Virus record (IMG/VR): IMGVR_UViG_3300047325_000011
Coordinates: 1-53,933 of that record
Source: a virus
Reading direction: 5' to 3' (one strand)
Length of the DNA stretch: 53,933 nt
Shown here one piece after another: positions 33,574-53,893 of the stretch. Numbering within the stretch: position 1 is the stretch's first letter; every line of letters begins with the position of its first letter. Made by a program: the position numbers and the translations under genes. Below the pieces are notes generated by a model that saw nothing but the letters and a program-made list of their open reading frames with translations, was not told the origin of the DNA and ran no database searches.

Positions 33574-35036
33574 TGACCACGTACACCAACACATTCGGTG
33601 CGAACAGCATCTCCCCTGCCCTGGTCGCGTACAACCCGATCACGCTGACTGCTGCCCCTGGAACAACTGCCAGCTTCACTGGAACGATCAGCGGCACCAC
33701 CCTGTCCGTCACTGGCGTAACTGGCACAATTGCCGCAGGGCAGACGCTCACCGGGACCGGCGTCACGACGGGTACCACGATTGTCAGCGGCGCCGGGAAC
33801 ACCTGGACGATCAGCCCATCGAACCCGTCACTCGGGCCGGAGGTCATGTCCTCTGCTGGAACAACTCCCCCGGTTGCGCTGGTGTGGCCGCTTGAAACCG
33901 CCCCCAACTCCAACCTCTGCACGCCGATCATCGACATCACGGCGGCAACGACCGGATCCTACGGGATCACGCTCCCGCCAGCGAACCAGGTGGGTGCTGG
34001 CACGTTCATCATCGTAAACAACCTGAGTTCTTACCCACAGGCTGTGTACAACAACTCTGGTGCGATAATCGTCGCCTCGCAGGCAGCCGGGTCGGTGTTT
34101 TTCTACTACCTGCAAAGCAATACCACCGCAGCAGGAACATGGTTCGCGCTGCAGTACGGCTCTGCGGTATCGACCCCCAGCGTCGCAGCCATCGCGGGGT
34201 CTGGAATCAAGGCAACGGGCGCCACTCTCAGCCAGGTGATCCAGGTCTCGACGTACACGGCGAACTACTCCTCGGGCAGCACAGACCTGGCGAAGCTCCT
34301 GGTGTGGGAGGGCGGGGCCGGGACGATCACGCTGCCCATATCTAGCGCAGTTGGCGCCTCCTGGTACGTCCAGATCAGGAACCAAGGAACCGCCACGCTC
34401 GCAGTCGCACCGAACGGCGGATCGACGGACAACATCAACGGCAATGGTGCGAACGTCAGCCTGACGATGAACATAGGCGACTCTGCGTTCTTTGTCACCG
34501 ACGGATTGGGAAACTGGTACACCATCGGTTTAGGCACCGTGCAGCCGGTGTTCTTCAACTACCAGCAAGTCAGCGTCACAGGCCAGCCCGCGACGATTGT
34601 CCTGGGCACCACGGTCGGGTCGCTGAACAAGATCGCGTACAAGTTCACCGGCACACTGAGCCAGAACACCACGGTCCAGCTACCGGCGTACGCGCAGACT
34701 TACTGGATCAACAACGCTACCACAGGATCCTTCACGCTGACGTTCCAGGTGACCACGGGTCTCGGGGCTACGGTGACTGTCGCTCAAGGTCTGCAGGTCA
34801 TCCTGTACTCGGACGGGGCGAACATCATCAACGCAGTCAGCGGCACCGGCCTCGGGAACCCTGTGCTGGTGAACCAGGGCGGAACCGGGGCAACGACCGC
34901 CGGGGCGGCACTGACCAACCTGGGTGGTACGTCCATCGGTACCACGGTGTTCACCGCAGCCAGCGCAGCAATCGCGCAGGCCGCAATCGCCTCGCCGTCG
35001 GTCGCTGACTCGTACGTCTTCGCCACGGTGCTGTAA
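33573..35036 (+). CDS. Tail fibre-like protein with GGTGATT motif
   Basis: 487 residues from GTG 33573. Repetitive Gly/Thr/Ser-rich beta sequence throughout. Near the C-terminus (about residues 430-465) is NQGGTGATTAGAALTNLGG, the motif often found in tail fibres just before a receptor-binding domain. Here the protein ends soon after it, so the tip may be supplied by another gene. It lies between the adaptor and the nozzle. Confidence 0.65.
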   Translation: MTTYTNTFGANSISPALVAYNPITLTAAPGTTASFTGTISGTTLSVTGVTGTIAAGQTLTGTGVTTGTTIVSGAGNTWTISPSNPSLGPEVMSSAGTTPPVALVWPLETAPNSNLCTPIIDITAATTGSYGITLPPANQVGAGTFIIVNNLSSYPQAVYNNSGAIIVASQAAGSVFFYYLQSNTTAAGTWFALQYGSAVSTPSVAAIAGSGIKATGATLSQVIQVSTYTANYSSGSTDLAKLLVWEGGAGTITLPISSAVGASWYVQIRNQGTATLAVAPNGGSTDNINGNGANVSLTMNIGDSAFFVTDGLGNWYTIGLGTVQPVFFNYQQVSVTGQPATIVLGTTVGSLNKIAYKFTGTLSQNTTVQLPAYAQTYWINNATTGSFTLTFQVTTGLGATVTVAQGLQVILYSDGANIINAVSGTGLGNPVLVNQGGTGATTAGAALTNLGGTSIGTTVFTAASAAIAQAAIASPSVADSYVFATVL

Positions 35037-39451: not shown

Positions 39452-41311
39452 ATGAAAAAAACAAAGTCCAAGCTGCGCGAAGTATACGAGTCGAAGCCGT
39501 TCCACGAGCGCGAGCGGTTCGATGACGGTGGCAGCGCAACCACTGGATCTAGCGACCAGAGTCTGATCAACCTCATTACTAATCCAGACACGAGTTACCT
39601 ACCGGATTCTCCTAACAGTTACGCCCCGGTGCCATTGCAAAGTGGCAGCACGCTGTCCGCAGATGACCAGGCGGCACTGAATGCGTACGGTGCGAGCGGC
39701 CCAGGTGCCCCGACCGACGTAGGCCCAGGCCCGCAGATCAACAACGGCACGATGGACGTGGATCCTGGGTCGGTACCTACCGTGAACAGCGGCACAGGAT
39801 CCAGCTCCGGCGGCTCAAGCGTCAGCAGCCAGACCGCAGGCGCACTCGGCAAGCTCCTTGGGCTGAGCGGTAGCAGCAACTCCACCGGTATGCAGGCATT
39901 GCAGGCCCTGATCGGCCTAGCCGGGGTGGGCGCGAACTACGCCAACAACAAGGCCAACACGCCTACCTTCGCACCCCCGGCCCTATTCGGCGGTCAGGCA
40001 GGGACGACCGGCGCCAACGGCTCCAGCGGAGGCTACGGACCCCCTGGCGGCTACAACTTTCAGAACTACAAGGGCGCGACCGCAAGCACGCCCGGACTGG
40101 GGTACGCACCGAGGACCGCCGTGACCCCCAACATCCCGAACTACTACACCTACGGGCAGGGTCCGCAGGCAAGTTTCTTCACCGGATCGGCTCCAGCCGC
40201 CCCCGCAGCCCCTAGTGCCCCGGCTGCGCCTCAGTCCAGCACTGGCGGCAACCCTTCAGGTCCGACGACCATGAAGCGCGGCGGCTTGATGCGCAAGTAC
40301 GCAGTCGGCGGCAGGGCGCGGCACTTCATTGGCGGCACACCCGCACCTGTGTCCGCACCAAACGCAGCACCCATTATTGGCACCCCAACGGGTGTAGGTA
40401 GCAGCGGCTTGCTGGCTGGCCTGGGCGCAATGGGCGGCACCGCACCTCCCGCATTGGGTGGGGCGGGGACTGGCGCGTTGTTGCAGGGAGTGCAAGGCCC
40501 AGCATTCACTACGGCTCAGCAGCAGTTCTTGGCGGGCAATGGTCCTGGGGCAATGAATCCCGCAAACAATCCTTTCTCAGCCAATAGCGGTGCGCCTTCT
40601 GGAGTTGGGGCACTTTCTCCGCAAGTCGGGGCGCAACTGCAACCCAAGCCTCCCGCAATGAGCAACGCGCTCCCGATTCCGGGTGTCGCAGGCCAGAACG
40701 GGCAAAGCATCGCTGGTGGCCTACTGTCTCAGCTTAACCGTCCACAGCCGTCCTCTGGCCTGACTGCGCATCAGCCCACTGCCTCACCGCAGCCGGTTAC
40801 GAACGCGCCAGCCCTGCAGCGCGGCCCAGTGCAGAGACCATTGGTTGGTATGCAGCGCCCTATGATGCGCGCCAGCGGCGGCAGCACCGTGGACGCCCCA
40901 GGCAACGGACCAATGGCCAGCTCGCACGTCATCCAGGAATCAGGCGTATCCCCGCTGTCGCAGATGTACCAGTCCCGTCGGCAGTGGCAGGGTCCGAGTT
41001 CCCAGAACATCGGCATGCCGCAAGCTCAAGGGCACGCATCCGGTGGCAGAGAGGGACCGCTTTCCCAGGTCAGCAGGCACGTCGTCGGCCCCGGTGACGG
41101 TACCTCGGACGACATCCCGGCCAGACTGGCAAACGGCGAGTACGTCATGGACGCGCAGACGGTCTCGATGCTGGGCAACGGCTCGAACGACGCTGGCGCC
41201 AAGAAATTGGATGCCTGGAGACAGAACATCAGGAAGCAGAAAGGGAAGGCTCTCGCGAAGGGCGAGATGGCGCCAGACGCGCACAAGAACCTGAACAGGT
41301 ACATGAAGTAA
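39452..41311 (+). CDS. Internal virion protein with conserved GPGDG...GEYVMDA C-terminus
   Basis: 619 residues from ATG 39452. Low-complexity Gly/Pro/Ser-rich body. Contains NYYTYGQGPQASFF near residue 230 (also in the upstream protein) and GG motifs (KYAVGGRARH, RASGGSTV, HASGGREG). The last 75 residues (VVGPGDGTSDDIPARLANGE, then VSMLGNGSNDAGAKKLDAWR) are a conserved C-terminal module of phage internal virion proteins. No enzymatic motif. TAATG overlap with the next gene. Confidence 0.65.
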   Translation: MKKTKSKLREVYESKPFHERERFDDGGSATTGSSDQSLINLITNPDTSYLPDSPNSYAPVPLQSGSTLSADDQAALNAYGASGPGAPTDVGPGPQINNGTMDVDPGSVPTVNSGTGSSSGGSSVSSQTAGALGKLLGLSGSSNSTGMQALQALIGLAGVGANYANNKANTPTFAPPALFGGQAGTTGANGSSGGYGPPGGYNFQNYKGATASTPGLGYAPRTAVTPNIPNYYTYGQGPQASFFTGSAPAAPAAPSAPAAPQSSTGGNPSGPTTMKRGGLMRKYAVGGRARHFIGGTPAPVSAPNAAPIIGTPTGVGSSGLLAGLGAMGGTAPPALGGAGTGALLQGVQGPAFTTAQQQFLAGNGPGAMNPANNPFSANSGAPSGVGALSPQVGAQLQPKPPAMSNALPIPGVAGQNGQSIAGGLLSQLNRPQPSSGLTAHQPTASPQPVTNAPALQRGPVQRPLVGMQRPMMRASGGSTVDAPGNGPMASSHVIQESGVSPLSQMYQSRRQWQGPSSQNIGMPQAQGHASGGREGPLSQVSRHVVGPGDGTSDDIPARLANGEYVMDAQTVSMLGNGSNDAGAKKLDAWRQNIRKQKGKALAKGEMAPDAHKNLNRYMK

Positions 41312-42291
41312 TGTCGAGCACACTCAACTCCCTGCTGCAGAACAACAGCCCCAGCACTGGCAGCAACTACAGCCAGAGCAGCACCCAGCTGCCTTCTTGG
41401 TACACGGACTACACGCAGCAGATCCTCAACTCCGCAGCCCAGTTCGCCGCGCAGCCGTACCAGACGTACCAGGGTCCGCGCATTGCGCAGCAGAGTGATC
41501 TTACCAACGACGCCTACAGTGCCGCGTCGCCGCTCTCCAGCACCGCCACGGGGAACACGCAGGCCGCGTCGAACCTGGTAGCCGCCGGAGCAAACCAGGC
41601 CAACAGCCCTCTGCAGCAGGCGCAGCCGTACCTGAACGCTGGCACGACCCCGACGTACGACACCGTCAACAGCTACATGAACCCGTACATGAGCAGCGTC
41701 CTGGGTGGTATATCGAACGCCGCGAACACAAATTTCCAGAACTACACGATGCCCGCGCTGCAGAGTTCCATCATCGGCGGCGGGAACATCACCGGCTCAT
41801 CGACCGAGGGCACGAACCTCGCGGAGAACGCTGAGCAGCAGAACAACCAGAACATCATCAACGCACAGTCGAGCGCGCTCCAGGGCGGATACAGCAGCGC
41901 ACTCAACGCAGCCCAGGCCGGTGCCCAGAACAGCCTGACCGCTGGCAGCACCGCCGGATCTCTGGCGAACGCCGGGACGCAGAACCTGATCAACGCAGGG
42001 TCCACGCTCTCGAACGTCGGCACCCAGGGCACGAACAACAACATCAACGCGATCAATGCACAGAACACGCTCGGGCTGCAGAACCAGGGCTACAACCAGT
42101 CCAACCTGAACCTCGCTTACCAGGACTACCTAAACCAGCTCAACTACCCGATGACGCAAGCCTCGGAGATGCAGAGCGCGCTCAATGGAATCCAGGTGCC
42201 ATCGGCGACGGTCAACTACAACTACGGCTCGAATCTGGCTGGTGGGAGCAACGGCTCGCCGCTGTCGCAGCTGCTCACACTCTTGGGCTAA
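41311..42291 (+). CDS. Ejection/internal virion protein, Asn/Gln-rich
   Basis: 326 residues from ATG 41311. LPSWYTDYTQQILNSAAQFA (27-46), then PYQTYQGPRIA (49-59), is a conserved start seen in podovirus internal proteins. The rest is Asn/Gln/Ala/Ser-rich with helical repeats (SSALNAAQAGAQNSLTAGST). It should be packaged in the head and released with the DNA. Function inferred from motif and neighbours. Confidence 0.65.
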   Translation: MSSTLNSLLQNNSPSTGSNYSQSSTQLPSWYTDYTQQILNSAAQFAAQPYQTYQGPRIAQQSDLTNDAYSAASPLSSTATGNTQAASNLVAAGANQANSPLQQAQPYLNAGTTPTYDTVNSYMNPYMSSVLGGISNAANTNFQNYTMPALQSSIIGGGNITGSSTEGTNLAENAEQQNNQNIINAQSSALQGGYSSALNAAQAGAQNSLTAGSTAGSLANAGTQNLINAGSTLSNVGTQGTNNNINAINAQNTLGLQNQGYNQSNLNLAYQDYLNQLNYPMTQASEMQSALNGIQVPSATVNYNYGSNLAGGSNGSPLSQLLTLLG

Positions 42292-42294
42292 CAC

Positions 42295-43974
42295 ATGCCG
42301 CAATTCTCAGAAGTTCCTGACGGGAACAATGCTCTCCAGGACGACCCAAGCCCGTTGCAGGCGGCGACTGACCCGTCTACCGGCTCTGGCTACGTTTCTC
42401 CGCACGCAGAGAATCACGAGCGTTACCTGAACGCTACCTCGGAGATGGATAGACTGCAGAAGCAGTACTCCGATCTCTCGGGGCAGAACGCTGACGCCTA
42501 CGCCGCGCAGAAGAAGGCCCTCCAGGACGCCACGGAGCGCCTGAATGCGATGAACTTCGGCCCAAGCGCGCAGGAGCAGCACTACCGTAACCTGGCGGCT
42601 TTCACAGACGGCTCTCACGGCGGCTACGGATTCAACCCCGCCGAGGTGAACCAGACCAAGGCCGACATCCTCAAGGAGCAGCGCGAGGCTGAGATGCAAA
42701 AGCAGCAGCTCCTGTCGAACTACGCGATGCAGATCCCGCAGGCGACGATTGCGGCGAACAAGGAGACGATGAACCAGAACCTTGGACAGCAGCGCGTCCT
42801 TGGTAGCCAGATCAACAACTCTGCAAATTCACAGTTCAAGCGCAATGGCAACGACCCCTGGTACGTGGCCAGAGACAACCAAGGAAACCCATTCATCCCG
42901 AAGCAGAACCTGGACGCCCTGGATCAAGTGGAGCTGTCGCACTTGTACGGGCGCTTCACGCTCGTCCCGAATCCAGACGGCAGCAAGCGCATCGTCCCCG
43001 GCGCATCCATCGCAGCCGGTGCCCCGCAAAATGGGTCCGCTCAACCCCAAACTGGGAATTCGCCCAAGATTCCTGGCCCGTCGGCTCCAGGTACCGGCGC
43101 ACCGCGTTCCCCTGCCCCGCAGACGGAACTCAGCCCGCAGTTCCTGTCCGGGCTGTTCCAGCCGTCCAATGTCCTCAGCCCGCGCTACGGTGCCCTGACG
43201 CAGGACACCAAGCCCGTGTACGTGCAGACGGCTCAGCAGGCGTTCGATCCGCAGGAGTTCCAGAACTACAAGTTCACCCCGGACTGGCTGACTAACAACA
43301 AGGACGCCATGAAGAAAGACCTGGAGCAAAAGAACAAGGAAATGTCTTCCACCCTGAGCGGCGCCAATAACACCATAAGCAACTACGGTCGCGCCCTGCA
43401 GGCTATCGACGGTCTACAGAACGACCCGAAGCTGATGACCGGACCATTCGGTGAGAAGAAGGCTGCCCTGGAGAACTTCCTGCGAGGTGCTGTGGGTGAC
43501 GACCTCACGGCGACGATCCTGAACGACCCGCAGCTGAAGGCCCTCGAAGCGAAGCAGGACAGCGACAAGTACTTCCGTCAGGCCGCAACCGCAGGCCTGC
43601 AGGCTGTCTACCATGGTAGAATTACGAACCAGGAGCTGAGCACGCAGCTCGCCAGCCTCCCATCCAGCAACCTGATGCCCGCGGTGGCGAGGATGCTGTC
43701 GAAGGCGCAGACCGACATCGCTCAGGACAACATCAACAAGGCCAAACTCTGGCCGGTCTACGTACAGAAGGGCGGCAACCCTAGCCTGTACGACGCCTGG
43801 TACGAGACGCACTTCAGCCCCTTCAGCACCGACAGCGTACTGACGAAGAACCTGCAAGCCGCGAAGTCTGGTGCTCAGCAAGCACCGCAGAATCCTCTGG
43901 TGCAGTACTACACCGCACTGGCTCAGTGGAGGGCGAACGGTCAGAAGGGACCGGAGCCGCAGAAACCGCAATGA
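42295..43974 (+). CDS. Ejection/internal virion protein, largely helical
   Basis: 559 residues from ATG 42295. Helical N-terminal region (MDRLQKQYSDLSGQNADAYA, then EQREAEMQKQQLLSNYAMQ), a Pro/Ser-rich hinge near 250-290, then a second helical domain (NKDAMKKDLEQKNKEMSSTL ... DIAQDNINKAKLWPVYVQ). No enzymatic motif. It resembles internal core proteins of podoviruses by layout. ATGA overlap with the next gene. Confidence 0.6.
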   Translation: MPQFSEVPDGNNALQDDPSPLQAATDPSTGSGYVSPHAENHERYLNATSEMDRLQKQYSDLSGQNADAYAAQKKALQDATERLNAMNFGPSAQEQHYRNLAAFTDGSHGGYGFNPAEVNQTKADILKEQREAEMQKQQLLSNYAMQIPQATIAANKETMNQNLGQQRVLGSQINNSANSQFKRNGNDPWYVARDNQGNPFIPKQNLDALDQVELSHLYGRFTLVPNPDGSKRIVPGASIAAGAPQNGSAQPQTGNSPKIPGPSAPGTGAPRSPAPQTELSPQFLSGLFQPSNVLSPRYGALTQDTKPVYVQTAQQAFDPQEFQNYKFTPDWLTNNKDAMKKDLEQKNKEMSSTLSGANNTISNYGRALQAIDGLQNDPKLMTGPFGEKKAALENFLRGAVGDDLTATILNDPQLKALEAKQDSDKYFRQAATAGLQAVYHGRITNQELSTQLASLPSSNLMPAVARMLSKAQTDIAQDNINKAKLWPVYVQKGGNPSLYDAWYETHFSPFSTDSVLTKNLQAAKSGAQQAPQNPLVQYYTALAQWRANGQKGPEPQKPQ

Positions 43975-46055
43975 CGCCGCAAGACCTTCAAGCCGCCCTG
44001 GTCGAAGCGCACAACGCTGGCGACGAAGACACCGCGATGAAGATCGCGCAGATGATCACCGCTGGCTCTGCCCCAAGACAGGTGCATAACTTCGACTCTA
44101 CTCCGAACGGCCTGGTTCCTACGGGATCACCAGCGGCACGTGCCGCGATGTCTCCGATTAGTGGCATGAACGCTTTGCAGCAGTTTCTCGCTGGCGCAGG
44201 CCAGAGCGTCGTCCAAACTGGTCGAGGACTCAAGCAACTCGGCGACATGGCTGCTGATGCCGTCTCTCCCCGCAGCCAAACTCTCTCAGGACAGGTGGAT
44301 GGACAGACCCGTCTCCAACAAGACCAAGACAGCGAGACTGATTCTCGAAAACTTGACGCACCCCTCAACAGCTCTGGCTGGGGGATTGCCGGGAATGTCG
44401 CTGGCAACATTGCTCAGTTCGCTGTCCCCGGCAGGATCCTGGGCGCCGCTGGCCAGCTCGCTCGTGGCAGTCAAGCAGCAAACCTCATCAACAGAGGCTC
44501 GCAGCTTGTCAAGGCAAGCCCCTGGACGGCAGCCGCAGCGACTGGTGCAACCATGGGCGCAATCGCCCCCACCGCAGGGGACGGCCAGCGCTGGGTCAAT
44601 ACCCTGGCTGGCGCTGCTGGTGGAGTTGGGGGTCAGGCTCTTGGAATGGGCGTCAATGCTGCTCTTAGGACCGGCGTCGGCGCACTTGAGTACGGTGCGC
44701 AGCAGGCCGCAAACATCGCTAAGAAGTACGGGATACCGCTCAGCCTGCCCGACCTTACCAACTCCCGGTTCGTCAAGTACTTTGACAGTGCCACCGCAGA
44801 GGCTCCTGGGTCGGGGGCAGAGCAGCGTCACGCAGAGAGTCGTCGGGCGTTTAACGACGCGCTAGGGCGGTCCACCGGGATACCTACCGACGGTGGCCCG
44901 ATTGACATGAGCAACTGGACAACCGGCAGGCGAGTCGTCGGATCCATGATCGGCGACATGGCGGACAACACGCAGGGTCTGTTGACTCCGCAAAACTTCG
45001 CCGACATTCAGAAGGTTCTCACTGACGCCCAGACCAAGGGCAGCGCCGACACGGAGCGGGCCGTCAGCGGCTACGTGAGTGACATGTTCCGCCACATGGA
45101 GCCGGTACCGGACCCTCTCCCTGGCGGACCCATCGCATCCATACCTGGAGACGCCTGGCGCGAGATCCACACCGACCTTGGTGACCGTGTCGCCGCAGAG
45201 GGCAGCACCGACCTTGGGAATCGGCTTAGCAAGCTACACGGGATCCACATGGACGTGCTGGAGAACGGCATGTCGCCGGATGACGCGAACCTATTCCGTG
45301 ACCTGCGCGGCAGGTACGCCCGCATCATGACTCTGCAGCCTCTGGCTGAAAAGGCACCGCTCGGGGAGGGCATAGACCCGAAGCTGGTGCTGAACCGCGC
45401 CATCGCTGACGGCAACGCCTACGACAGCAACGGCAACATGTGGCCTCTTGGGGAGCTGGGGCAGCTGGCGAAAAAGACCATGACCGCCAAGGTGCCAAAC
45501 AGCGGCACCCCGATCCGCGCCATGATTCATGGTGCGATGATCGCCCCATTCGTTGGCGGCGAGGCTTACCACCAGGGCCAAGACAAAGAGCACTCCGCTG
45601 GCTTGGGCGCCGCCACCATTCCTACTGTGATGCTCTTAGAAGCGGCAGGCAACCGCGCACTTGGATCCAGGCTGCTTGCCAAGTACGCCGCCGCGCAGAT
45701 GCCCGAGGCTGCCGCTGCACCAATTCGCGCCGCCACCTCCGTGCTGCCACTAGCCGGGGCTGCCGCAGCTACTCAGCACCACCCAGAGGTCTCGGTGCAT
45801 TTCCCGGATGACCCTGATCAGCAGCCGCAAGGCCACGCCGATGGCGGACAGGTGCTGGATCACAACGGGAATCCGATCCATAAGTCCACCTTCTGGGATC
45901 TCGTAAAGCAGGGCTGGAGCGACCTCACTGGCGGGGACTCAACTCCCGCGCCGTCTCAGGCACCAATCGGTTCCGGCATCGCTCAGCAGGGCGCGCAGCT
46001 CATATCAGGCAGACAGCACCAGATCGACCAGGCCGTAACTGACGCTGGCGGTTGA
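43971..46055 (+). CDS. Ejection/internal virion protein with GD...A N-terminal motif
   Basis: 694 residues from ATG 43971, which overlaps the previous stop (ATGA). The N-terminus DLQAALVEAHNAGDEDTAMK...IAQMI (5-30) is a short helical motif that also opens the 47749 protein. Hydrophobic Gly/Ala-rich segments occur at about 125-215 and again at 520-600. The C-terminal part has GHADGGQVLDHNGNPI, one of the recurring GG motifs. Probably inserts in the host membrane during DNA entry. The next gene follows after a 46-base gap. Confidence 0.65.
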   Translation: MTPQDLQAALVEAHNAGDEDTAMKIAQMITAGSAPRQVHNFDSTPNGLVPTGSPAARAAMSPISGMNALQQFLAGAGQSVVQTGRGLKQLGDMAADAVSPRSQTLSGQVDGQTRLQQDQDSETDSRKLDAPLNSSGWGIAGNVAGNIAQFAVPGRILGAAGQLARGSQAANLINRGSQLVKASPWTAAAATGATMGAIAPTAGDGQRWVNTLAGAAGGVGGQALGMGVNAALRTGVGALEYGAQQAANIAKKYGIPLSLPDLTNSRFVKYFDSATAEAPGSGAEQRHAESRRAFNDALGRSTGIPTDGGPIDMSNWTTGRRVVGSMIGDMADNTQGLLTPQNFADIQKVLTDAQTKGSADTERAVSGYVSDMFRHMEPVPDPLPGGPIASIPGDAWREIHTDLGDRVAAEGSTDLGNRLSKLHGIHMDVLENGMSPDDANLFRDLRGRYARIMTLQPLAEKAPLGEGIDPKLVLNRAIADGNAYDSNGNMWPLGELGQLAKKTMTAKVPNSGTPIRAMIHGAMIAPFVGGEAYHQGQDKEHSAGLGAATIPTVMLLEAAGNRALGSRLLAKYAAAQMPEAAAAPIRAATSVLPLAGAAAATQHHPEVSVHFPDDPDQQPQGHADGGQVLDHNGNPIHKSTFWDLVKQGWSDLTGGDSTPAPSQAPIGSGIAQQGAQLISGRQHQIDQAVTDAGG

Positions 46056-46070
46056 ACTATTCTCGCAAAT

Positions 46071-46090
46071 CGTAGTCCTACTACGATAAT
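46071..46090 (+). promoter_or_regulatory. Inverted repeat and possible -10 ahead of the SPFH gene
   Basis: CGTAGT-CCT-ACTACG (46071-46085) is a perfect hairpin, overlapping GATAAT (46085-46090), which could be a -10 box. There is no convincing -35. It hints at separate regulation of the SPFH gene. Confidence 0.4.
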
Positions 46091-46101
46091 GGAGTACTCC
46101 T

Positions 46102-46617
46102 TTGTTTGACCGTTTAGTGGACCTTCTAATCGGGTGCATCGACCTGTTCAGGTTCTGGTGCGTGATACCGGAGTATGAACGAGGCGTGCTGCTCCGTCTA
46201 GGGAAATTTGTGCGCGAGTGCGAGCCTGGGTTTCACTGGGTGCTGCCGTTCTCGATAGACCACGTCATCGCTCAAGTAGTTGTTCCCAGCACGCACTCAC
46301 TGGGGCACGAGAGCGTGACCACCAAGGACGGAAAGGCGATCACATTCCACGCGGTCTGTACGTACTCCATCCGTGACATCCGCAAGGCGCTCCTCGAAGT
46401 CGAGGACGTCAACCACGCCGTCCGGGACGCATGCTCGGGCGAGATCGGCAGGGTGCTGCATGAAGCAACCTGGGAAGAGATCATCGGCGGCGAGATCATT
46501 GACAAGGCAACCGCAGCCTGCCGCAAGAGGGGCTTTAGATTTGGAATCGAAGTTACTTCCGTGCAATTCGCCAGCATGTCTCTTACCAAGAACCTGCGAA
46601 TTTTCGGCTCAACCTGA
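46102..46617 (+). CDS. SPFH/stomatin-prohibitin (band 7) domain protein
   Basis: 171 residues. TTG 46102 is used because GGAG lies seven bases upstream; GTG 46117 is the other option. Residues 4-22 (RLVDLLIGCIDLFRFWCVI) form a membrane hairpin. The band 7 signature follows: PEYERGVLLRLGKFVRECEP, then GFHWVLPF (43-50), VTTKDGKAITFHAV and the helical tail DVNHAVRDACSGEIG. Stomatin-type proteins scaffold membrane microdomains and control proteases. It is rare between ejection genes, short compared with HflK/C (about 300), and lacks the long C-terminal coiled coil. Confidence 0.8.
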   Translation: MFDRLVDLLIGCIDLFRFWCVIPEYERGVLLRLGKFVRECEPGFHWVLPFSIDHVIAQVVVPSTHSLGHESVTTKDGKAITFHAVCTYSIRDIRKALLEVEDVNHAVRDACSGEIGRVLHEATWEEIIGGEIIDKATAACRKRGFRFGIEVTSVQFASMSLTKNLRIFGST

Positions 46618-46625
46618 GGACACCC

Positions 46626-47768
46626 ATGATCGAATCCACACGCTCCGCAGTCGAACGTCTCCTGGCAGATGGCAAGTCACACCGCGAGATCGCCAGGGAG
46701 CTGGACATCAGCCATGGCACGGTGAGCCACCACGCATCAGTCCTCAAGGTCCAAAGGGGCGCATCCGCGCTGCTGCATCCGGTTCCTGACGCTCACCAGG
46801 TCAAGGGAGTTTCTACGCTCCTGGACAAGGACGGCGTGATCAAGCAGCAGTGGATCAAGACCAACGTCGAGGAGCGTCGTGAGGAGCTGGCGAAGCAGGC
46901 CGCTCTCGAAGCGATGATGGAGATGCTGCCAAGGCTGGAGCCGCTGCCGGGTCCGCCGACTTACTTGCACAACCTGATGACGGCCTACCCGTTCACCGAC
47001 TGCCACCTCGGCATGTTGAGCTGGGGCAAGGAAACCGGCGACAAGTGGGACATCGACATCGGTGAGCAGACCCTGCTGCAGGCGTTCGACATGATGTGCG
47101 CCAGCAGCCCCAACTCCGAGTACGGACTCGTGATGCAGATGGGTGATTTCCAGCACTTCGACGGCATGGTTCCCGTAACCCCGGAGCACGGGCACGTCCT
47201 GGACGCCGACAGCCGCTTCAGCAAGATCGTCAAGGTAGCGATCCGGGTGCAGCGCCAGATCATTGACCGGGCGCTCCGCAAGCACCGGTACGTCAAGGTG
47301 ATCGTCGCTGACGCGAACCACGACCCAAGCTCCCAGGTATGGGCGCGGCACATGCTGTCGGCCCTGTACGAGAACGAGCCACGGGTCGAGGTGGTACAAT
47401 GTGAGAACCCGTACCCCGTCATCCAGCACGGGAAGACCATGCTCGCCGTCCACCACGGACACAAGGTCAAGAACGAGGAGCTGCCGGGTATTTTCGCGAC
47501 GATGTACGCCCCGATGTGGGGCCAGACCACGCGCCGGTACTGCCACGTCGGGCACCGCCACCACAAGGAGGTGCAGGCGAAGGAGTTCAACGGCATGATC
47601 GTTGAGCAGCACCAGACCATCGCAGCCAAGGACGCCTACGCCGTGCGCGGGGGGTGGCTTGCGCAACGCTCCATCACCTCGATCACGTACAGTGACCGCT
47701 ACGGGGAAGTCGGCAGATCGACCGTCACCCCTGAGATGCTACCCGTAAATGCCGAATTCCAACGATGA
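46626..47768 (+). CDS. HTH-metallophosphoesterase fusion protein
   Basis: 380 residues from ATG 46626. The N-terminal helix-turn-helix (about 18-40: SHREIARELDISHGTVSHHA) is followed by a linker. A calcineurin-type phosphoesterase domain then shows motifs in order: D125-x-H127 (FTDCHLG), G173-D174 (QMGDFQHFD), N231-H232-D233, H276-H277-G-H279 and G309-H310-x-H312. These bind two metals. It could be a DNA-guided nuclease or phosphatase. Position next to SPFH and inside the ejection block is unusual. Overlaps the next gene by 20 bases. Confidence 0.75.
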   Translation: MIESTRSAVERLLADGKSHREIARELDISHGTVSHHASVLKVQRGASALLHPVPDAHQVKGVSTLLDKDGVIKQQWIKTNVEERREELAKQAALEAMMEMLPRLEPLPGPPTYLHNLMTAYPFTDCHLGMLSWGKETGDKWDIDIGEQTLLQAFDMMCASSPNSEYGLVMQMGDFQHFDGMVPVTPEHGHVLDADSRFSKIVKVAIRVQRQIIDRALRKHRYVKVIVADANHDPSSQVWARHMLSALYENEPRVEVVQCENPYPVIQHGKTMLAVHHGHKVKNEELPGIFATMYAPMWGQTTRRYCHVGHRHHKEVQAKEFNGMIVEQHQTIAAKDAYAVRGGWLAQRSITSITYSDRYGEVGRSTVTPEMLPVNAEFQR

Positions 47769-50700
47769 AACAGCAATCAGTGCCCCGTACCCAACGGACC
47801 AGGAACTACTGGCCGCTCTAGGGCGTGCCAACGCATCCGGGGACAAGGTAACCGCGCAGCGCATCGGTCAGATGCTGCTGCACAACTCCTACCGCTCGAC
47901 CCAGCCGCATCTGCCGGAAGCACCAGGCGTCACCGTGGATGGTGGTCCTCCCGCATCCAGGCAAGACACCGATTACCTCGGGATGCTCAAGTACCTGGCG
48001 CAGGACGCCGTGGTGAACGTCGCCAGCGGCATCGACGCGGTCGGCAACCTCCCACGCAACCTGATACAGAACGGCTGGGACAAGGGCATGGACAAGGCTG
48101 CGAATGACATGGCTGCGTTCCAGGCTAAGTACGGCCCATCAGACCCATCTGACGCGGTCGTCAACGCCTACGGTGACAGCATCGCACCCGCAGTAGACGT
48201 CGCCAAAAGCATCCCAGAGGTGCGCGGGCTTGGCATGATCTCGGACGCCTACGGCAGCGCCGTGGACGAACTCGCTGCCCAGGCTGGGCACGCGGACCCC
48301 AGGCTCTCCGGTGCCGTCGGTGCCATCGGCCATTCCTTGCCCATGCTGCTGAACCCGGAGACGCTCCTGGGCAAGTACGCCGGAGAAGCTGCCGCCGAAG
48401 GTACTGCCGCACTCCGCTCCGCCCCAAAGCCCTCTCCGTCGGCCACAGACCCCTTCCCGCTGGACTCCCCGCTCAAGTTCACCCCCAGTGACGATGGCCG
48501 GGTGCATCTCAACTCGACGCCGGGTGCCCTGGAGCGGGAAGGTGAGGCTGCCAGACGTTCTGCGGCCCCGGTTTTCACCAAGTCCACGGTACCCACATCC
48601 GAGGTGGACCTGTCGCACCTCACGCCCCCCAGCTTCAGCCCGCCAGACAATGCCATCAGCGTCGTAGCCCACGACCCGGAGACCGGTCAGTTGGTTGGGC
48701 ATTCCACCTTCGTCCCTCGCGGCAATGCGATGCAATCCCTTCGGATGGACGTAGACCCGGCCTACCGTGGGATCGGTGTCGGCCCCGCGCTGCTACAGGA
48801 CGCTGTCGGCCACGCACACGGTCAGGGGATGGACTTCCTGTCCGACAGCCAGGTCAGCATCCCAGCCGCGAGAACGTACGAGAAGCTGAAGGGCGTGAAC
48901 CTGGTCCGCAACCCCGACGTCGATCACATCATGGACGAGACTGACGGCCAGGTGGGCAGATCCCAGAACGGGCAGCCCGTGTACTCAATCCCCGCCGCCA
49001 GCCACGCAGACGACGCGCTCGAAGGTGAGCCTGAGCCGAACAGCTGGATCGCGAGCCAGGCGTACGCCGAGGGCGGCGGCGCGGAGATGGAGCCTGTCCT
49101 GGGTGGCCTGTCCAAGCTCGCAGAACGATTCGCGACCCGCGACCCGCACATCGCGCAAGCTGTAGCCGACCACGCCATCGAGAAGGGCGGCATCACGTAC
49201 CACCCGACGACTTCGACGCAGCCCACCGCTGGGTACGCTGTCACCAACGCATACCCTGGCCGTGAGGCAGTACTCAACCGCCCCATTACCGGCCCAGACG
49301 TCCACAGCTTCATCACCAAGAACGCCGACGTCTTCGGTAACGACATGTCAGCCCACTTCGGCGCCTGGAAGAACGGCGACGACTGGTACATGGACGTGGC
49401 CCACATTGACCCGGACCTGGAGAGCGCGCTCGGGAAGGCCAAGGACAGCAACCAGCAGGCGATCTACGACCTGGGCAGCGGGCAGGACATCCCCAACCCT
49501 CACTACCAGCCCCCGCAGCAGCCTACACCTTCCTGGGGCGGGCAACCGAGTGACAAGATCCGACAGGTCGCGGAGCAGTACATGCAGCAGGCGGGGCTGC
49601 CGTACAACCCGCCGAAGTCGCTGGTCTCCGTAGATCCCAACCGCAGCAGGGCAATTGCGCAAGCCTACGAGGAGATGCAGCACGCCCCTAACGACCCCAA
49701 GGTAGCCGCCAGCTACCAGGCACTGATCCGGGAGACGATGGCGCAGTACCAGGCCGCGAAGGCTGCGGGGCTGAAGGCGGAGTTCATCCCGCCCGGTTCA
49801 CCGGACCCGTACGGCAACCCCAGGAATGTGATCAAGGACATCCACGAGAACAACCACATGTGGGTGTTCCCTACCGACGCAGGCTTCGGCTCGGACCCGT
49901 CCATCGACGTCAGCGACAACCCCCTGCTGGGGCAGTCCGGGGAGAGCTTCAACGGCATCCCGGCGACGCACAACGACATCTTCCGGGTGGTGCATGACTA
50001 CTTCGGGCACGCCAAGGAGGGCAACGGCTTCCGCGCCAATGGCGAGGAGAACGCATGGCTGCAGCACTCCAGGATGTACAGCCCAGAAGCACTACCGGCG
50101 ATGACGAGCGAGACCCGTGGCCAGAACAGCTGGGTGAACTTCGGGCCGCACGCAGAAGCCAACAGGGGTGCCTCAGGTGCGGACACTATCTACGCCCCGC
50201 AGAAGGTTGGGCTTCTGCCTGACCAGTTCACCGATCCAGACGCGAGCTACGGATCCGGCGTCCCGCACTTCGCGGACGGTGGCCCAGCTGAGCTGGATCC
50301 TGTGCTTGGTGCTCTAAGTAAGCTCGGGGCGCGGTACGCCGCACGCCTCAACCCGCAGGCCGAACACCTCGCGGAGCGCGCCGCAGAGGCTCCGTCCCTG
50401 ACCTACAACCCCACGACCGGCGACTTGCCGCATGAGGGGTACCTGGTCCCACAGCCAGGCATGTCTATGTCCCTGGACTCGGACGCTACGCCTGGCGACT
50501 TCCACGACTTCATGCTCCAGCACCAGGACGCCTTCGAGAACCCCAAGGCCGTGATCCACGCCGAGAAGGATCCCAACGGCAACGGCAGCTTCCTGCACGT
50601 CGCGATCCACGAGCCTGACTTCGAGGGCGCGATGGCTGCGGCGCAGAGCTTCGGCGCCCCAGGGGTGCGAGAGATCCACACCGGCAAGAACTTCTCTGCG

Positions 50701-51924
50701 GCTGGGCCAGCTCCGCTGGTTGCTGGGCAGGAGCCTGTCGAGCACGAGTACTTGGATGACAACAAGTCCTTCGCGAAGAACGCACTGATCAACGAGCCGG
50801 TAGCCAGCAGGCCACTGGACGAGTACGACAGGATTCACTACCCGCCGCAGCAAAGCACTCCATGGACCCCAGGGCGGCAGACCGTCACCAACCCGGTCAG
50901 GAACTACGCCCCCGGAATATACGGACCAACCAAGGAAGTCGTTGACCAGGCGGCTGATCTTGCTAGCCAGTCACCAGAGAACCCGATGATGCGGCGCCTG
51001 TTTGGTGTAACCAGGCAAGACCTGGCAGACATAGGTGCCGGTCGTCAGGGGAACCTGCTTGGGCAGCCAAAGGGATACAAACGCAACCCCGAAGGCAGCC
51101 AGTCTGCGCTCAACATTATGACCCCCCAGAACGCGCAGCGCCTGGTTGACGCTCTGGACTACGCAAGAACCAAGCCCGAACTGTCTACCGGCATGACCGG
51201 GTGGTATGTCATGGACCCGGCCTACCAGCGCATCCTGCATCTCGTTGGTGACGAGGACCAGGCGAAACGGATATATGACCAACTGAATACGTACCAAGCC
51301 ATCAGCAGCCCACAGACCCCGGTGGACCGGGAGCTGAACGTCGCCGGGACCGCGCACTGGCTCAAGAACGCGGGACGCTGGAGCGACTACCAGAACATGG
51401 TGGACGCAGGTAAGGCTGGCCAGAACCCGGCAGACATCCAGGACTTGATGACGCACGTCTACCACAACAGCCAGAACGTCCCAGCGATGAACAGGTACAA
51501 CGAGCGCGGGGTCATAGGCAGCGTCCCGATGGACGCCCCCAAGGCGTACGTTTATGGGGAGGCCAGTAACGTGCCAGAGATCGGCAACCAGACTCGGACC
51601 CCGGTGGGCGACACGCATTTCTCAAGTGCGGTTGGGCTGCTCGACACCAGGACCGCAAAAGACCCCAAGGGGTCTGTCAGCACCGAGGAACTTCAGACTT
51701 TTGCTCCCTGGTTCAGGTCTCATGTAGCTGACCGGGCTGGCTACGAGTCGGTCCCGGCACAGGCCAACCTGTGGGGTATCTTTGCGCCGCAGACTGGGGT
51801 GCGCAGCGGTATCGGGATGCCGAAGCTGGAGCTGATGACCCAGGAGATACAGAACCTAGCAGACCGCGCTGGCGTTTCTCCTGAGACCGCCAGAGACATG
51901 TACCTACTGGGGCAGAGACCCTAG
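47749..51924 (+). CDS. Giant polyvalent/ejection protein with GNAT-like domain and internal duplication
   Basis: 1391 residues from ATG 47749. The N-terminus (DQELLAALGRANASGDKVTA) shares the GD...A motif of the 43971 protein. About residues 300-390 look like a GNAT acetyltransferase (MDVDPAYRGIGVGPALLQDA). Two related blocks begin near 441 (GGGAEMEPVLGGLSKL) and 842 (GGPAELDPVLGALSKL), each ending with PD.E.A..A. Between them lies a His-rich domain (RVVHDYFGHAKEGNGFRANG, about 746-765). The C-terminal 300 residues are another conserved phage polyvalent domain. Such proteins are injected with the DNA. Confidence 0.7.
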   Translation: MPNSNDETAISAPYPTDQELLAALGRANASGDKVTAQRIGQMLLHNSYRSTQPHLPEAPGVTVDGGPPASRQDTDYLGMLKYLAQDAVVNVASGIDAVGNLPRNLIQNGWDKGMDKAANDMAAFQAKYGPSDPSDAVVNAYGDSIAPAVDVAKSIPEVRGLGMISDAYGSAVDELAAQAGHADPRLSGAVGAIGHSLPMLLNPETLLGKYAGEAAAEGTAALRSAPKPSPSATDPFPLDSPLKFTPSDDGRVHLNSTPGALEREGEAARRSAAPVFTKSTVPTSEVDLSHLTPPSFSPPDNAISVVAHDPETGQLVGHSTFVPRGNAMQSLRMDVDPAYRGIGVGPALLQDAVGHAHGQGMDFLSDSQVSIPAARTYEKLKGVNLVRNPDVDHIMDETDGQVGRSQNGQPVYSIPAASHADDALEGEPEPNSWIASQAYAEGGGAEMEPVLGGLSKLAERFATRDPHIAQAVADHAIEKGGITYHPTTSTQPTAGYAVTNAYPGREAVLNRPITGPDVHSFITKNADVFGNDMSAHFGAWKNGDDWYMDVAHIDPDLESALGKAKDSNQQAIYDLGSGQDIPNPHYQPPQQPTPSWGGQPSDKIRQVAEQYMQQAGLPYNPPKSLVSVDPNRSRAIAQAYEEMQHAPNDPKVAASYQALIRETMAQYQAAKAAGLKAEFIPPGSPDPYGNPRNVIKDIHENNHMWVFPTDAGFGSDPSIDVSDNPLLGQSGESFNGIPATHNDIFRVVHDYFGHAKEGNGFRANGEENAWLQHSRMYSPEALPAMTSETRGQNSWVNFGPHAEANRGASGADTIYAPQKVGLLPDQFTDPDASYGSGVPHFADGGPAELDPVLGALSKLGARYAARLNPQAEHLAERAAEAPSLTYNPTTGDLPHEGYLVPQPGMSMSLDSDATPGDFHDFMLQHQDAFENPKAVIHAEKDPNGNGSFLHVAIHEPDFEGAMAAAQSFGAPGVREIHTGKNFSAAGPAPLVAGQEPVEHEYLDDNKSFAKNALINEPVASRPLDEYDRIHYPPQQSTPWTPGRQTVTNPVRNYAPGIYGPTKEVVDQAADLASQSPENPMMRRLFGVTRQDLADIGAGRQGNLLGQPKGYKRNPEGSQSALNIMTPQNAQRLVDALDYARTKPELSTGMTGWYVMDPAYQRILHLVGDEDQAKRIYDQLNTYQAISSPQTPVDRELNVAGTAHWLKNAGRWSDYQNMVDAGKAGQNPADIQDLMTHVYHNSQNVPAMNRYNERGVIGSVPMDAPKAYVYGEASNVPEIGNQTRTPVGDTHFSSAVGLLDTRTAKDPKGSVSTEELQTFAPWFRSHVADRAGYESVPAQANLWGIFAPQTGVRSGIGMPKLELMTQEIQNLADRAGVSPETARDMYLLGQRP

Positions 51925-52160
51925 ACCGCTCTGTCAGATTGTGACTCAAGATCTCGCCCGATCCGCATGATCTCACCAACCGCAGGATGCACCGGCATTG
52001 GTAGCACCAATTTGGCGTAGTCCCAGAACTTTACTATCGCCGCCTCAAGCTCGCGGATGCGCTCTTGATGCTTGAACAGTGTTGCCGACTGCTCCCACAG
52101 CCCGCAGTCGCACGGCATGCCCTTCTGCACGTAGCCACAATTGCCAGCATGCTCACTCAT
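51921..52160 (-). CDS. Small Cys-containing coiled-coil protein
   Basis: 79 residues on the minus strand, ATG complementary to 52158-52160. GNCGYVQKGMPCDCGLWEQ gives three Cys for a small metal site; then FKHQERIRELEAAIVKFWDY forms a coiled coil. Its stop lies in the CTAG shared with the convergent plus-strand gene. Starts eight bases before the upstream gene ends. Resembles the coiled-coil genes upstream. Function unknown. Confidence 0.65.
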   Translation of the reverse strand: MSEHAGNCGYVQKGMPCDCGLWEQSATLFKHQERIRELEAAIVKFWDYAKLVLPMPVHPAVGEIMRIGRDLESQSDRAV

Positions 52161-52869
52161 TCTCTGCTCCCCGGTCCAAAGCGGTTTCAATGAGCTGACG
52201 GAAGTCTTCGTCCATTCCTTGCTTGCGCACCAGCGAATACAAATCACTCAGCGCCGCCTCAAGCTCGCATATACGCAATCGCCGTGTCTCGCTGACTTTT
52301 ACCTCACTATTGCGCACGCTTTGGATCTCGTTAATTTGAAATTCAAGCTCGCGGATGCGGCCCTTTGCCGCCACGATCATCTTGTGGTGATGTAGCTCAG
52401 GATACGGTGTCTCTGTGTCGTAATTCAGGTTCTCAATCAGCCTTTGTAGCTTGATTGCATACTCGATATCGACATTACCGCTGGCGAGGGCGGCGCGGGC
52501 TTGCATATCAGCGGGCATCAACTTAGCTGCCGTAGCATCAGCAGCGCCTACCGCATCCCAGTCTTTGGCGTGCCAATACTCAAGCACGCACGCTTCAAGC
52601 TCAGCGATGCGGGCCTCCAGCACCGGGACTCGCGGATCACCCATGCGCTGACGCTCGTCGGTTTGTGGTTCCATCAAGTCGTATCTAGCGACTTGGGTCC
52701 GCATCCATGGATATTGCTCCGCGCTTTCGTCGCGGTCGTCCGCTTCGTAAGCGATGCAGTCGCATTCCTCGACGTGGCACGCGGTCGAGCCGGAATACTT
52801 CGGATCGTGTCCGTGCTCCTCTATGGCGTGACCGCACTGGCAAGGTTCGAATCCGGTTCTTTCAGTCAT
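52153..52869 (-). CDS. Zinc-ribbon and coiled-coil protein
   Basis: 238 residues on the minus strand, start complementary to 52867-52869. The N-terminal CQCGHAIEEHGHDPKYSG plus ACHVEECDC is a Cys/His cluster for one or two zinc ions. It is followed by several short coiled coils (EARIAELEACVLEYWHAKDW, GRIRELEFQINEIQ, LRICELEAALSDL). A 79-bp stretch (52249-52327) is identical to one in the gene at 53362. Probably a small early regulatory or structural protein. No family is recognised. Confidence 0.65.
   Translation of the reverse strand: MTERTGFEPCQCGHAIEEHGHDPKYSGSTACHVEECDCIAYEADDRDESAEQYPWMRTQVARYDLMEPQTDERQRMGDPRVPVLEARIAELEACVLEYWHAKDWDAVGAADATAAKLMPADMQARAALASGNVDIEYAIKLQRLIENLNYDTETPYPELHHHKMIVAAKGRIRELEFQINEIQSVRNSEVKVSETRRLRICELEAALSDLYSLVRKQGMDEDFRQLIETALDRGAENE
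52249..52327. repeat. 79-bp perfect direct repeat, copy 1
   Basis: Identical base for base to 53518-53596 and read in the same frame in both minus-strand genes. The flanks diverge at once, indicating recent copying. Confidence 0.95.
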
Positions 52870-52912: not shown

Positions 52913-53365
52913 TCATGGCTTACCCTCGCCACTCGGAGCGGAGCATCGTTCCATGATTAGCAGCCCGCTTCCGGTTCGTCCGCATCGACGCCATCCGGCT
53001 TTGCGAAAGCAAAATCCAGGGTTCGTTGAGGCGATCCTTTCCGGGTTGATGTAGGTGTAATGCCGGCTATCAGGCCAGAGGATATCAGCAATCGAATCCG
53101 CTTGGCGTATGAGGTCCGAGCTGCGGTGAGCTGACTCGTTGCGGAACACTGCGCAGTTGACGCCTTGCTGTCCGCTGTCGTCATGGAACTTGCGCCAGAC
53201 CCAGACGGCATCCGCTTGCGCCGTCCTGAGAACAACCTTTTCGCCGGGACCGACGAACAGGGTTCGCTTTCGCCCATCGGCGTATCGGTAGGCTGAATAA
53301 TGTCGCTCATACATGGCGAGACATGCCTTGTCGCCATCCTTCGTAAGCCACCATAGAGGATTCAT
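52913..53365 (-). CDS. Conserved phage protein (WWLT.DG..A / CFRKAG type)
   Basis: 150 residues on the minus strand, start complementary to 53363-53365. Matches a widespread uncharacterised phage/bacterial family: LWWLTKDGDKACLAMYERHY (4-23), VLRTAQADAVWVW, VFRNESAHRSSDLIRQA (around 75-91), YTYINPERIASTNPGFCFRK, then a terminal GWRRCG and LLIMER. The function has not been established. ATGA overlap with the gene upstream on the same strand. Confidence 0.75.
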   Translation of the reverse strand: MNPLWWLTKDGDKACLAMYERHYSAYRYADGRKRTLFVGPGEKVVLRTAQADAVWVWRKFHDDSGQQGVNCAVFRNESAHRSSDLIRQADSIADILWPDSRHYTYINPERIASTNPGFCFRKAGWRRCGRTGSGLLIMERCSAPSGEGKP

Positions 53366-53658
53366 GCATGCTTCGCTCCCCGGTTCGCGGCTGTTGTGGC
53401 ACCTGAAGCCGCGTGTGCAAGGGCGGTATCCGCGATCTGGTTGACCTTGTACATGCGCGCGGCTACGTCGTGCTCGTCATCGGCGATGAACTGCTCAGAG
53501 TAGTCGGCTATCTCATGCAGCGCCGCCTCAAGCTCGCATATACGCAATCGCCGTGTCTCGCTGACTTTTACCTCACTATTGCGCACGCTTTGGATCAGCT
53601 CCGCGACCCCTCGCTGGCACAGGTAATGGGAGTCCAAATGTTTCTCGTCAAAGCTCAT
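53362..53658 (-). CDS. Coiled-coil protein sharing a segment with the 52153 gene
   Basis: 98 residues from the ATG complementary to 53656-53658, with GGAGG correctly spaced; a GTG/ATG at 53688 would add 10 residues. The first 30 residues are unique. Then VRNSEVKVSETRRLRICELE is identical to residues of the other protein because the DNA (53518-53596) is an exact copy of 52249-52327. The C-terminal part is helical and Ala-rich. Unknown function. Confidence 0.65.
   Translation of the reverse strand: MSFDEKHLDSHYLCQRGVAELIQSVRNSEVKVSETRRLRICELEAALHEIADYSEQFIADDEHDVAARMYKVNQIADTALAHAASGATTAANRGAKHA
53518..53596. repeat. 79-bp perfect direct repeat, copy 2
   Basis: Second copy of the repeat at 52249-52327. 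It encodes the VRNSEVKVSETRRLRICELE coiled-coil segment. Confidence 0.95.
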
Positions 53659-53893
53659 GATCTGATCCTCCGCTGTCGGTGATCCCATCGCAAATTTCCG
53701 ATTTCATATCTAAAACCAGATTGTCGTACTCGGCGTTGCTCAATTCAATGAACGATGTGGACCCACACGAGCCGTCTGGGTTAGCGGGCGAACGCACTGT
53801 GATGCGAACGCTTTTCATGTCGTCGTTACGACTTACGTTGATGTATGGGGGATATGGGTATGTTGCGGGCGTGTGCGCGGTAATGTATTTCAT
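53648..53893 (-). CDS. Small hypothetical protein
   Basis: 81 residues on the minus strand, ATG complementary to 53891-53893. YPPYINVSRNDDMKSVRITV, then PDGSCGSTSFIELSNAEYDN, resembles small phage alpha/beta proteins of unknown function. It overlaps the next gene by about ten bases. A later Met (residue 26) is a possible start, but the upstream part looks coding. Confidence 0.65.
   Translation of the reverse strand: MKYITAHTPATYPYPPYINVSRNDDMKSVRITVRSPANPDGSCGSTSFIELSNAEYDNLVLDMKSEICDGITDSGGSDHEL

What the first reader, a model, noticed from the sequence alone, without database searches (positions are those of the whole stretch)
46056..46620. SPFH/stomatin-like membrane protein between ejection genes
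A compact band 7 domain protein with an N-terminal membrane hairpin is encoded inside the ejection block, with its own hairpin/-10-like upstream element and a TTG start. SPFH proteins organise membrane domains and regulate FtsH-type proteases. In a phage it could guard the infected membrane, steer DNA entry, or counter membrane-acting defences. It lacks the usual long coiled coil.
Basis: partly seen in the sequence, partly recalled or inferred. Interest (0 to 1): 0.7.

Follow-up and report, generated by a model that had tools for sequence, protein, structure and literature searches.

The report
Coil-less SPFH membrane protein of phages
This phage gene makes a cut-down cousin of stomatin, a protein that organises cell membranes; it has lost the long stalk its cellular relatives use to build domes, and it belongs to a phage-only branch, not described in any paper found here, whose job is unknown but can be tested directly.

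Summary
Window 46102-46617 (+) encodes a 171-aa SPFH/Band 7 protein (Pfam 65 bits, cut-off 23.6; AlphaFold pLDDT 92; best solved match human stomatin). It lies in a block of ejection-type genes, between a "DNA ejection protein" gene and a metallophosphoesterase gene. It has a TTG start with a Shine-Dalgarno and an unusual hairpin upstream. The "membrane hairpin" is not supported: the model shows one short amphipathic helix. No promoter was found.

It is not a one-off. The same gene follows the ejection gene in four related IMG/VR contigs (two nearly identical). Compact homologues (160-195 aa when complete) occur in very different phages, beside portal, terminase, spanin, capsid or DNA-transfer genes, or in other regions. 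They stop at the end of the SPFH2 domain, with no coiled coil, and most carry a conserved short tail instead. They form one clade apart from the sampled cellular and long phage SPFH proteins (100/100 support); a close subgroup shows purifying selection.

Best reading: a peripheral scaffold on the inner leaflet that keeps SPFH's membrane and self-association surfaces but cannot build the usual dome, acting on membrane proteins late in infection. The mechanism is inferred. New variant of a known kind.

The parts
46102..46617 (+). CDS, 171-aa compact SPFH/Band 7 protein, TTG start
   Evidence: Pfam PF01145 65 bits; AF2 pLDDT 92; Foldseek stomatin/HflKC/QmcA; compact homologues
46105..46146 (+). 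codons of N-terminal amphipathic helix (residues 2-15)
   Evidence: helix in AF2 model; hydrophobic moment 0.52; polar/charged residues at 3, 4 and 7 recur across the family
46156..46278 (+). SPFH1 subdomain (about residues 19-59; boundary approximate)
   Evidence: strands E19-22 to E53-59; G34, G43, H45, W46, P49 invariant in 28 sequences
46279..46584 (+). SPFH2 subdomain (about residues 60-161; boundary approximate)
   Evidence: D76 and G148 invariant
46585..46614 (+). short C-terminal tail with conserved (R/K)x(I/L/F)R(L/I/V)-like motif (here KNLRI) where cellular SPFH proteins start the coiled coil
   Evidence: 18 of 27 match the pattern used, most of the rest are close variants; 129-154 residues from the PGxHW motif to the end versus mostly 237-299 in cellular SPFH
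46091..46094 (+). Shine-Dalgarno GGAG, 7 nt before the TTG
   Evidence: sequence
46069..46087 (+). 8-bp hairpin ATCGTAGT-CCT-ACTACGAT between the upstream stop codon and the Shine-Dalgarno; flanks can pair across the start codon
   Evidence: z=-3.1; single copy; not seen in relatives L018, L019, L021 (sequences)
43926..46055 (+). upstream CDS, 709 aa, DNA-ejection-protein-like
   Evidence: phrog_26400 E=4.5e-21; syntenic in the L004 contig, 40% identity
46626..47768 (+). downstream CDS, 380 aa, helix-turn-helix + metallophosphoesterase
   Evidence: phrog_704 E=3.1e-117; syntenic in three relatives
47749..51924 (+). downstream CDS, 1391 aa, structural/ejection-like; N-terminus weakly similar to that of the 709-aa ORF; GNAT domain at residues 303-380
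41311..42291 (+). CDS, 326 aa, DNA-ejection-protein-like, part of the block
   Evidence: phrog_4287 E=3.3e-6

Best explanation
The gene encodes a member of a phage-specific, coil-less branch of the SPFH superfamily. Shown: it is an SPFH1+SPFH2 protein with an N-terminal amphipathic helix and no coiled coil; it is fixed at one place in this phage group and widespread as a compact clade elsewhere. Inferred: it is made late with the structural operon, docks on the cytoplasmic leaflet of the inner membrane through its short amphipathic helix and SPFH1 face, and self-associates through the SPFH2 end it retains into small oligomers, rings or patches. It cannot build the closed dome of stomatin, HflKC or QmcA because the coiled coils and cap strand are missing. 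It would therefore act as an open membrane belt that corrals or shields inner-membrane proteins or lipids, most likely phage or host membrane proteins that matter late in infection, rather than as a sealed cage around FtsH.
For: Fold and family. All 28 aligned members pass Pfam Band_7. Truncation is uniform: compact chains run 129-154 residues from the PGxHW motif to the end, cellular ones mostly 237-299. Compact clade separate from sampled long SPFH: 100/100 on 181 columns and SH-aLRT 98 with helix and tail removed. Purifying selection, dN/dS 0.06-0.14 in a close subgroup. N-terminal hydropathy well below cellular SPFH (median 1.17 versus 2.30) and amphipathic. Many compact genes lie beside late genes: ejection (window, L018, L019, L021), Rz-like spanin and DNA-transfer protein (L025; L024 shares the neighbours), portal (L030), terminase (L029, L033, MW202733, L044, L045), head-tail adaptor and major head protein (L023). 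Literature: the SPFH domain of P. horikoshii stomatin PH0470 oligomerises even without the coiled coil, and residues 162-168 of PhStom at the SPFH2 end are a universal dimerisation segment (PMC9663324); stomatin forms a membrane belt around AQP1 and UT-B (PMC12407830).
Against: No oligomer, localisation, expression or partner data. In some members (L035, L039, L042, L043, L053) the gene lies in regions with primase, nucleotide-metabolism or phosphoesterase genes, and in L037/L040/L041/L047/L048 among small genes, so late timing is not universal. The window's own N-terminal hydropathy (1.75) is borderline, so full membrane insertion is not excluded.
Confidence: 0.42

Rival explanations
1. It is packaged in the virion with the ejection proteins and, on injection, coats or seals the inner membrane round the ejection channel so that DNA can enter without loss of membrane potential.
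For: In the window group it follows an ejection-protein gene and precedes (after the phosphoesterase) a 1391-aa structural-looking protein. In the separate L024/L025 lineage it is two genes before a DNA-transfer protein (phrog_1745).
Against: Other members sit next to terminase, portal, capsid or small unrelated genes, with no recognised ejection gene alongside. No packaging signal can be recognised.
Confidence: 0.18
2. It modulates host FtsH: a truncated SPFH that competes with HflK/HflC or poisons their assembly and so protects phage membrane proteins from FtsH.
For: HflK is the best single-sequence solved hit (E=2e-6); authors of phage papers invoke HflKC-like lysogeny control for phage SPFH genes (PMC8540360; PMC10269572).
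Against: HflK/HflC have a transmembrane helix and act from the periplasm (own knowledge); this protein has neither a crossing helix in the model nor a recognisable signal peptide. The profile of the whole family is closest to stomatin, not HflK.
Confidence: 0.12
3. It is a lysis or envelope factor that times holin/spanin action or stabilises the membrane until lysis.
For: An Rz-like spanin lies directly upstream in L025, and in L024 by shared neighbours; terminase-adjacent positions elsewhere, where T7-like phages keep lysis genes (own knowledge).
Against: The window has its own endolysin (31689-32216) and holin (32207-32641), 14 kb away.
Confidence: 0.12
4. It is an anti-defence or superinfection-exclusion membrane protein.
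For: Accessory distribution: 0 of 50 contigs chosen through a terminase relative carry any Band_7 gene, while it is present in every contig of the window group that covers the place; it recurs in unrelated phages.
Against: Position inside the structural operon with conserved synteny in four contigs is unlike most anti-defence islands; no defence gene was recognised nearby. The PADLOC library was not scanned.
Confidence: 0.1

Closest known systems
Stomatin (human, mouse, Pyrococcus PH1511)
   Same: SPFH1+SPFH2 fold, monotopic rather than crossing anchor, profile match E=7e-23, TMq 0.79, retains the SPFH2 end used for dimerisation (PMC9663324)
   Different: No CC1/CC2 coiled coil, no apical cap strand, a 14-residue helix instead of the intramembrane segment at residues ~20-53 (PMC12407830)
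HflK/HflC
   Same: SPFH core aligns over residues 20-129 of the query
   Different: No transmembrane helix of cellular strength, no coiled coil, no HflK-HflC gene pair
QmcA and other SPFH-NfeD pairs
   Same: SPFH core (8z5g, E=1.6e-11)
   Different: No coiled coil; no NfeD partner recognised among the neighbours
Long phage SPFH proteins (e.g. Escherichia phage Skarpretter band 7 protein, Rhizobium phage Pasto, phrog_200 'lipoprotein')
   Same: Band 7 domain in phage genomes
   Different: About 280-310 aa with a long C-terminal region, annotated among early/replication genes in the isolates looked at; four sampled long ones from viral contigs group with cellular SPFH in the tree. One contig carries both kinds (G022)
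A0A6J7WFI0, 173-aa 'HflK' of an uncultured Caudovirales phage; MW202733 'prohibitin-like protein'
   Same: Same compact size and fold for A0A6J7WFI0 (TM 0.89); MW202733 match lies right after the large terminase gene
   Different: 26% identity (A0A6J7WFI0) and 21% (MW202733) to the window protein; annotated in passing, no study found

Membership tests
SPFH / Band 7 superfamily | Band_7 profile match above the curated cut-off | tested here: met
   65.1 bits against 23.6; 28 of 28 aligned members match
SPFH / Band 7 superfamily | SPFH1+SPFH2 fold | tested here: met
   AF2 pLDDT 92.2, Foldseek E=1.5e-14 to stomatin
SPFH / Band 7 superfamily | N-terminal transmembrane or intramembrane anchor | tested here: inconclusive
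   Amphipathic helix 2-15, hydropathy 1.75, borderline; family median 1.17 against 2.30 for cellular SPFH
SPFH / Band 7 superfamily | Ring or dome oligomer | not testable with these tools
   Needs blue-native PAGE or cryo-EM
Stomatin/HflKC/QmcA-type dome builders | C-terminal coiled coil (CC1/CC2) and cap strand | tested here: not met
   Chain ends 10 residues after the last SPFH2 strand; uniform across the compact clade
HflK/HflC | Transmembrane helix putting SPFH in the periplasm, and a partner HflC/HflK gene | tested here: not met
   No helix of crossing length in the model; only one Band_7 gene in the record, which may be incomplete
SPFH-NfeD pairs | Adjacent NfeD gene | tested here: not met
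   Pfam and PHROGs scans of the flanking ORFs gave ejection-type and metallophosphoesterase matches, no NfeD
Podophage ejection proteins | Presence in the virion and injection into the host | not testable with these tools
   No proteomics; gene order only

The most novel reading that the evidence does not exclude
Tailed phages share a dedicated, single-origin class of coil-less SPFH proteins that act late on the cytoplasmic leaflet as open membrane belts (a dome-less mode of SPFH action not known in cells), functionally tied to a nearby metallophosphoesterase.
Probability: 0.25. Interest if true: 0.75.

Novelty: new variant of a known kind. Interest (0 to 1): 0.52.

Why it matters
SPFH proteins are thought to work by building membrane-bound domes from their coiled coils. 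A conserved phage-only clade that drops the dome but keeps the membrane-facing and self-association parts would show what the SPFH core does alone, and would hand phage biologists a defined, small membrane protein to test in infection. The papers found that discuss a role for phage SPFH genes point to HflKC-like lysogeny control; this form does not fit that guess well.

Tried and rejected
Single-protein tblastn against cultured phages at E<=1e-5 gave nothing, and a single-protein scan of viral contigs gave nothing; relatives were reached through a tail-protein neighbour and then an alignment. The ejection protein itself found no relatives by scan. Rejected: spurious ORF (fold, homologues, synteny; dN/dS in a related subgroup); gene acquired recently from a host (compact clade apart from cellular SPFH, although sampling was pattern-based); the SPFH protein as the phage's holin (separate holin and endolysin); hairpin as a conserved regulatory element (absent in relatives; single copy); sigma70 promoter. 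A first tree left the compact group at two changes because of very long rows (L063, L113 and L038); with these left out, and the cellular set thinned, it is one clade. One bacterial compact hit (L065, Acidobacteriales MAG) has RtcB and tRNA-His guanylyltransferase genes nearby (phrog_1075, phrog_4717), so it may be a phage contig binned into a MAG.

Full report
OBSERVATION. The window is an IMG/VR virus record of 53,933 bases. The ORF at 46102-46617 (+) encodes 171 aa from a TTG with GGAG 7 nt upstream. It matches Pfam Band_7 at 65.1 bits against a cut-off of 23.6. An AlphaFold2 model built on 28 family members has pLDDT 92.2 and shows helix 2-15, the SPFH1 strands, the SPFH2 strand/helix pattern, and an end 10 residues after the last strand. 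Foldseek against the PDB returns human stomatin first (E=1.5e-14, TMq 0.79), then HflC/HflK, QmcA, erlin, prohibitin, flotillin. A profile of the family finds stomatin at E=7e-23, ahead of QmcA (3e-20) and HflK (4e-19).

SURROUNDINGS. Upstream, 43926-46055 is a DNA-ejection-protein-like ORF (phrog_26400, E=4.5e-21) and 41311-42291 is another (phrog_4287, E=3.3e-6). Downstream, 46626-47768 is a helix-turn-helix metallophosphoesterase (phrog_704, E=3e-117), then a 1391-aa ORF whose N-terminus resembles that of the upstream ejection ORF (28% over 166 residues, E=4e-5 for the pair alone). Lysis genes are 14 kb away: endolysin 31689-32216 and holin 32207-32641. So the SPFH protein is not needed as the holin.

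THE UPSTREAM ELEMENT. An 8-bp hairpin ATCGTAGT-CCT-ACTACGAT (46069-46087) lies between the upstream stop and the Shine-Dalgarno. The 66-nt region folds at -18.3 kcal/mol, z=-3.1, and its flanks can pair the upstream stop region with the start region. This would suit translational coupling, but that is inference. There is no other copy in the window, relatives lack it, and no sigma70-like promoter was found in 42,000-48,000.

IT IS A CONSERVED PHAGE GENE. Contigs reached through a tail protein (35036-36802) carry a Band_7 gene of the same size at the same place, followed by a phrog_704-like phosphoesterase (L004, L005, L006; the last two give identical SPFH proteins and are nearly the same phage). 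Identities to the window protein are 56% and 59%. A fourth relative (L018) has the same ejection-SPFH order but a different phosphoesterase after it (phrog_221, E=2e-47; no meaningful BLAST similarity to the window's).

A WIDER COMPACT FAMILY. An alignment-based scan returned 37 viral loci; 31 distinct compact ones were read, some cut off by contig ends, and five others are long or cellular-like forms. The compact proteins are 160-195 aa when complete or nearly so, mostly begin with a similar M-[FIL]-[DE]-[KR]-L-[IV] segment, and have invariant G34, G43, H45, W46, P49, D76 and G148 (window numbering). From the PGxHW motif to the end they have 129-154 residues, whereas the sampled cellular SPFH proteins mostly have 237-299. 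In place of the coiled coil they end in a short tail; 18 of 27 match the pattern [RKIH][STNIA][FILVY][RMK][LIV] and most of the rest are close variants such as NSIRV. Close members show dN/dS of 0.06-0.14.

ORIGIN. In a tree of 28 compact and 28 long SPFH proteins the compact ones form one side of a branch with 100/100 support. With the N-helix and tail removed, the split remains at SH-aLRT 98. A larger first tree gave two changes and had extremely long rows. The two genome scans found no compact form in bacteria among the hits read, except L065 in an Acidobacteriales MAG, with RtcB and tRNA-His guanylyltransferase genes nearby. Caveat: all searches used short peptide patterns and only 47 of the 80 returned bacterial loci were read, so the census is incomplete and biased.

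CONTEXTS. Besides the ejection setting: Rz-like spanin upstream and DNA-transfer protein downstream (L025; L024 by shared neighbours); head-tail adaptor and major head protein (L023); portal (L030); right after terminase (L029, L033 and the complete podovirus MW202733); before terminase (L044, L045); tail genes upstream and an exonuclease (phrog_284) downstream (L022). Others lie in regions with primase, nucleotide and phosphoesterase genes (L035, L039, L042, L043, L053) or among small genes (L037, L040, L041, L047, L048). In contrast, the long phage SPFH genes in isolates looked at are annotated near early or replication genes. One contig, G022 (L037's), holds both a compact SPFH and a 292-residue open frame for a long SPFH with a lipoprotein-like signal, which suggests different jobs.

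A POSSIBLE PARTNER. Phosphoesterases recur near compact SPFH genes: phrog_704 (window, L019, L021), phrog_221 (7 of 25 contigs in one search), phrog_284 (L022), phrog_1649 (L037). phrog_221 was found in 0 of 50 contigs of one terminase family used as a control (Fisher p=2.4e-4). The control is a single phage clade, rows are not independent, and the idea came from the same contigs, so this is a lead only. The same control had 0 of 50 Band_7 genes, so the gene is accessory at a wider scale.

MECHANISM. Shown: SPFH core, no coiled coil, amphipathic N-helix, weak hydropathy compared with cellular SPFH (median 1.17 against 2.30; window 1.75, borderline). From papers: in stomatin SPFH1 and an intramembrane helix form the base of the dome, SPFH2 a second layer, and CC1, CC2 and a C-terminal strand the wall and cap; the belt encloses AQP1 or UT-B (PMC12407830). 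SPFH domains can oligomerise without the coiled coil and dimerise through the SPFH2 end (PMC9663324). Inferred: the phage protein keeps the base and loses wall and cap, so it would make open oligomers on the inner leaflet. An HflKC-type role is less likely because nothing places it in the periplasm. What it acts on is unknown.

VERDICT. A genuine, conserved phage protein; a new variant of the SPFH kind (coil-less, phage-only clade as far as sampled). No paper on this form was found in the searches made; SPFH genes of phages in general are long known (e.g. PMC1524935), and some compact members are already annotated in databases as "HflK" or "prohibitin-like".

Noticed in passing
L018:5349-5636 (-), L019:5857-5946 (-), L021 about 5870-5950 (-): In the gap between the ejection ORF and the SPFH gene, three relatives carry a small antisense ORF with a Shine-Dalgarno-like sequence encoding a hydrophobic peptide (95, 29 and about 27 aa; the last read by eye); the window has no room for it.
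   Followed up: partly
window 46626-47768; L018:6270-7118: The gene after SPFH is a metallophosphoesterase in each case, but from sequence-unrelated families (phrog_704 versus phrog_221), which looks like replacement of one phosphoesterase by another at the same place.
   Followed up: partly
G022 contig (L037, L222): One phage contig encodes both a compact SPFH and a long SPFH with a lipoprotein-like signal peptide.
   Followed up: partly
window 24840-25523 (+): One ORF matches HNH endonuclease families in its first half and endonuclease VII families in its second half, apparently a fused nuclease.
   Followed up: no
window 52153-52869 (-) and 53362-53688 (-): Two minus-strand ORFs share an identical stretch (IQSVRNSEVKVSETRRLRICELEAAL), a sign of a recent duplication near the record's end.
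   Followed up: no
window 47749-51924 (+): The 1391-aa structural-looking ORF contains a GNAT acetyltransferase domain (residues 303-380).
   Followed up: no
L065 (Acidobacteriales MAG contig): A compact SPFH gene in a bacterial MAG contig lies near RtcB and tRNA-His guanylyltransferase genes, so the contig may be a large phage.
   Followed up: partly
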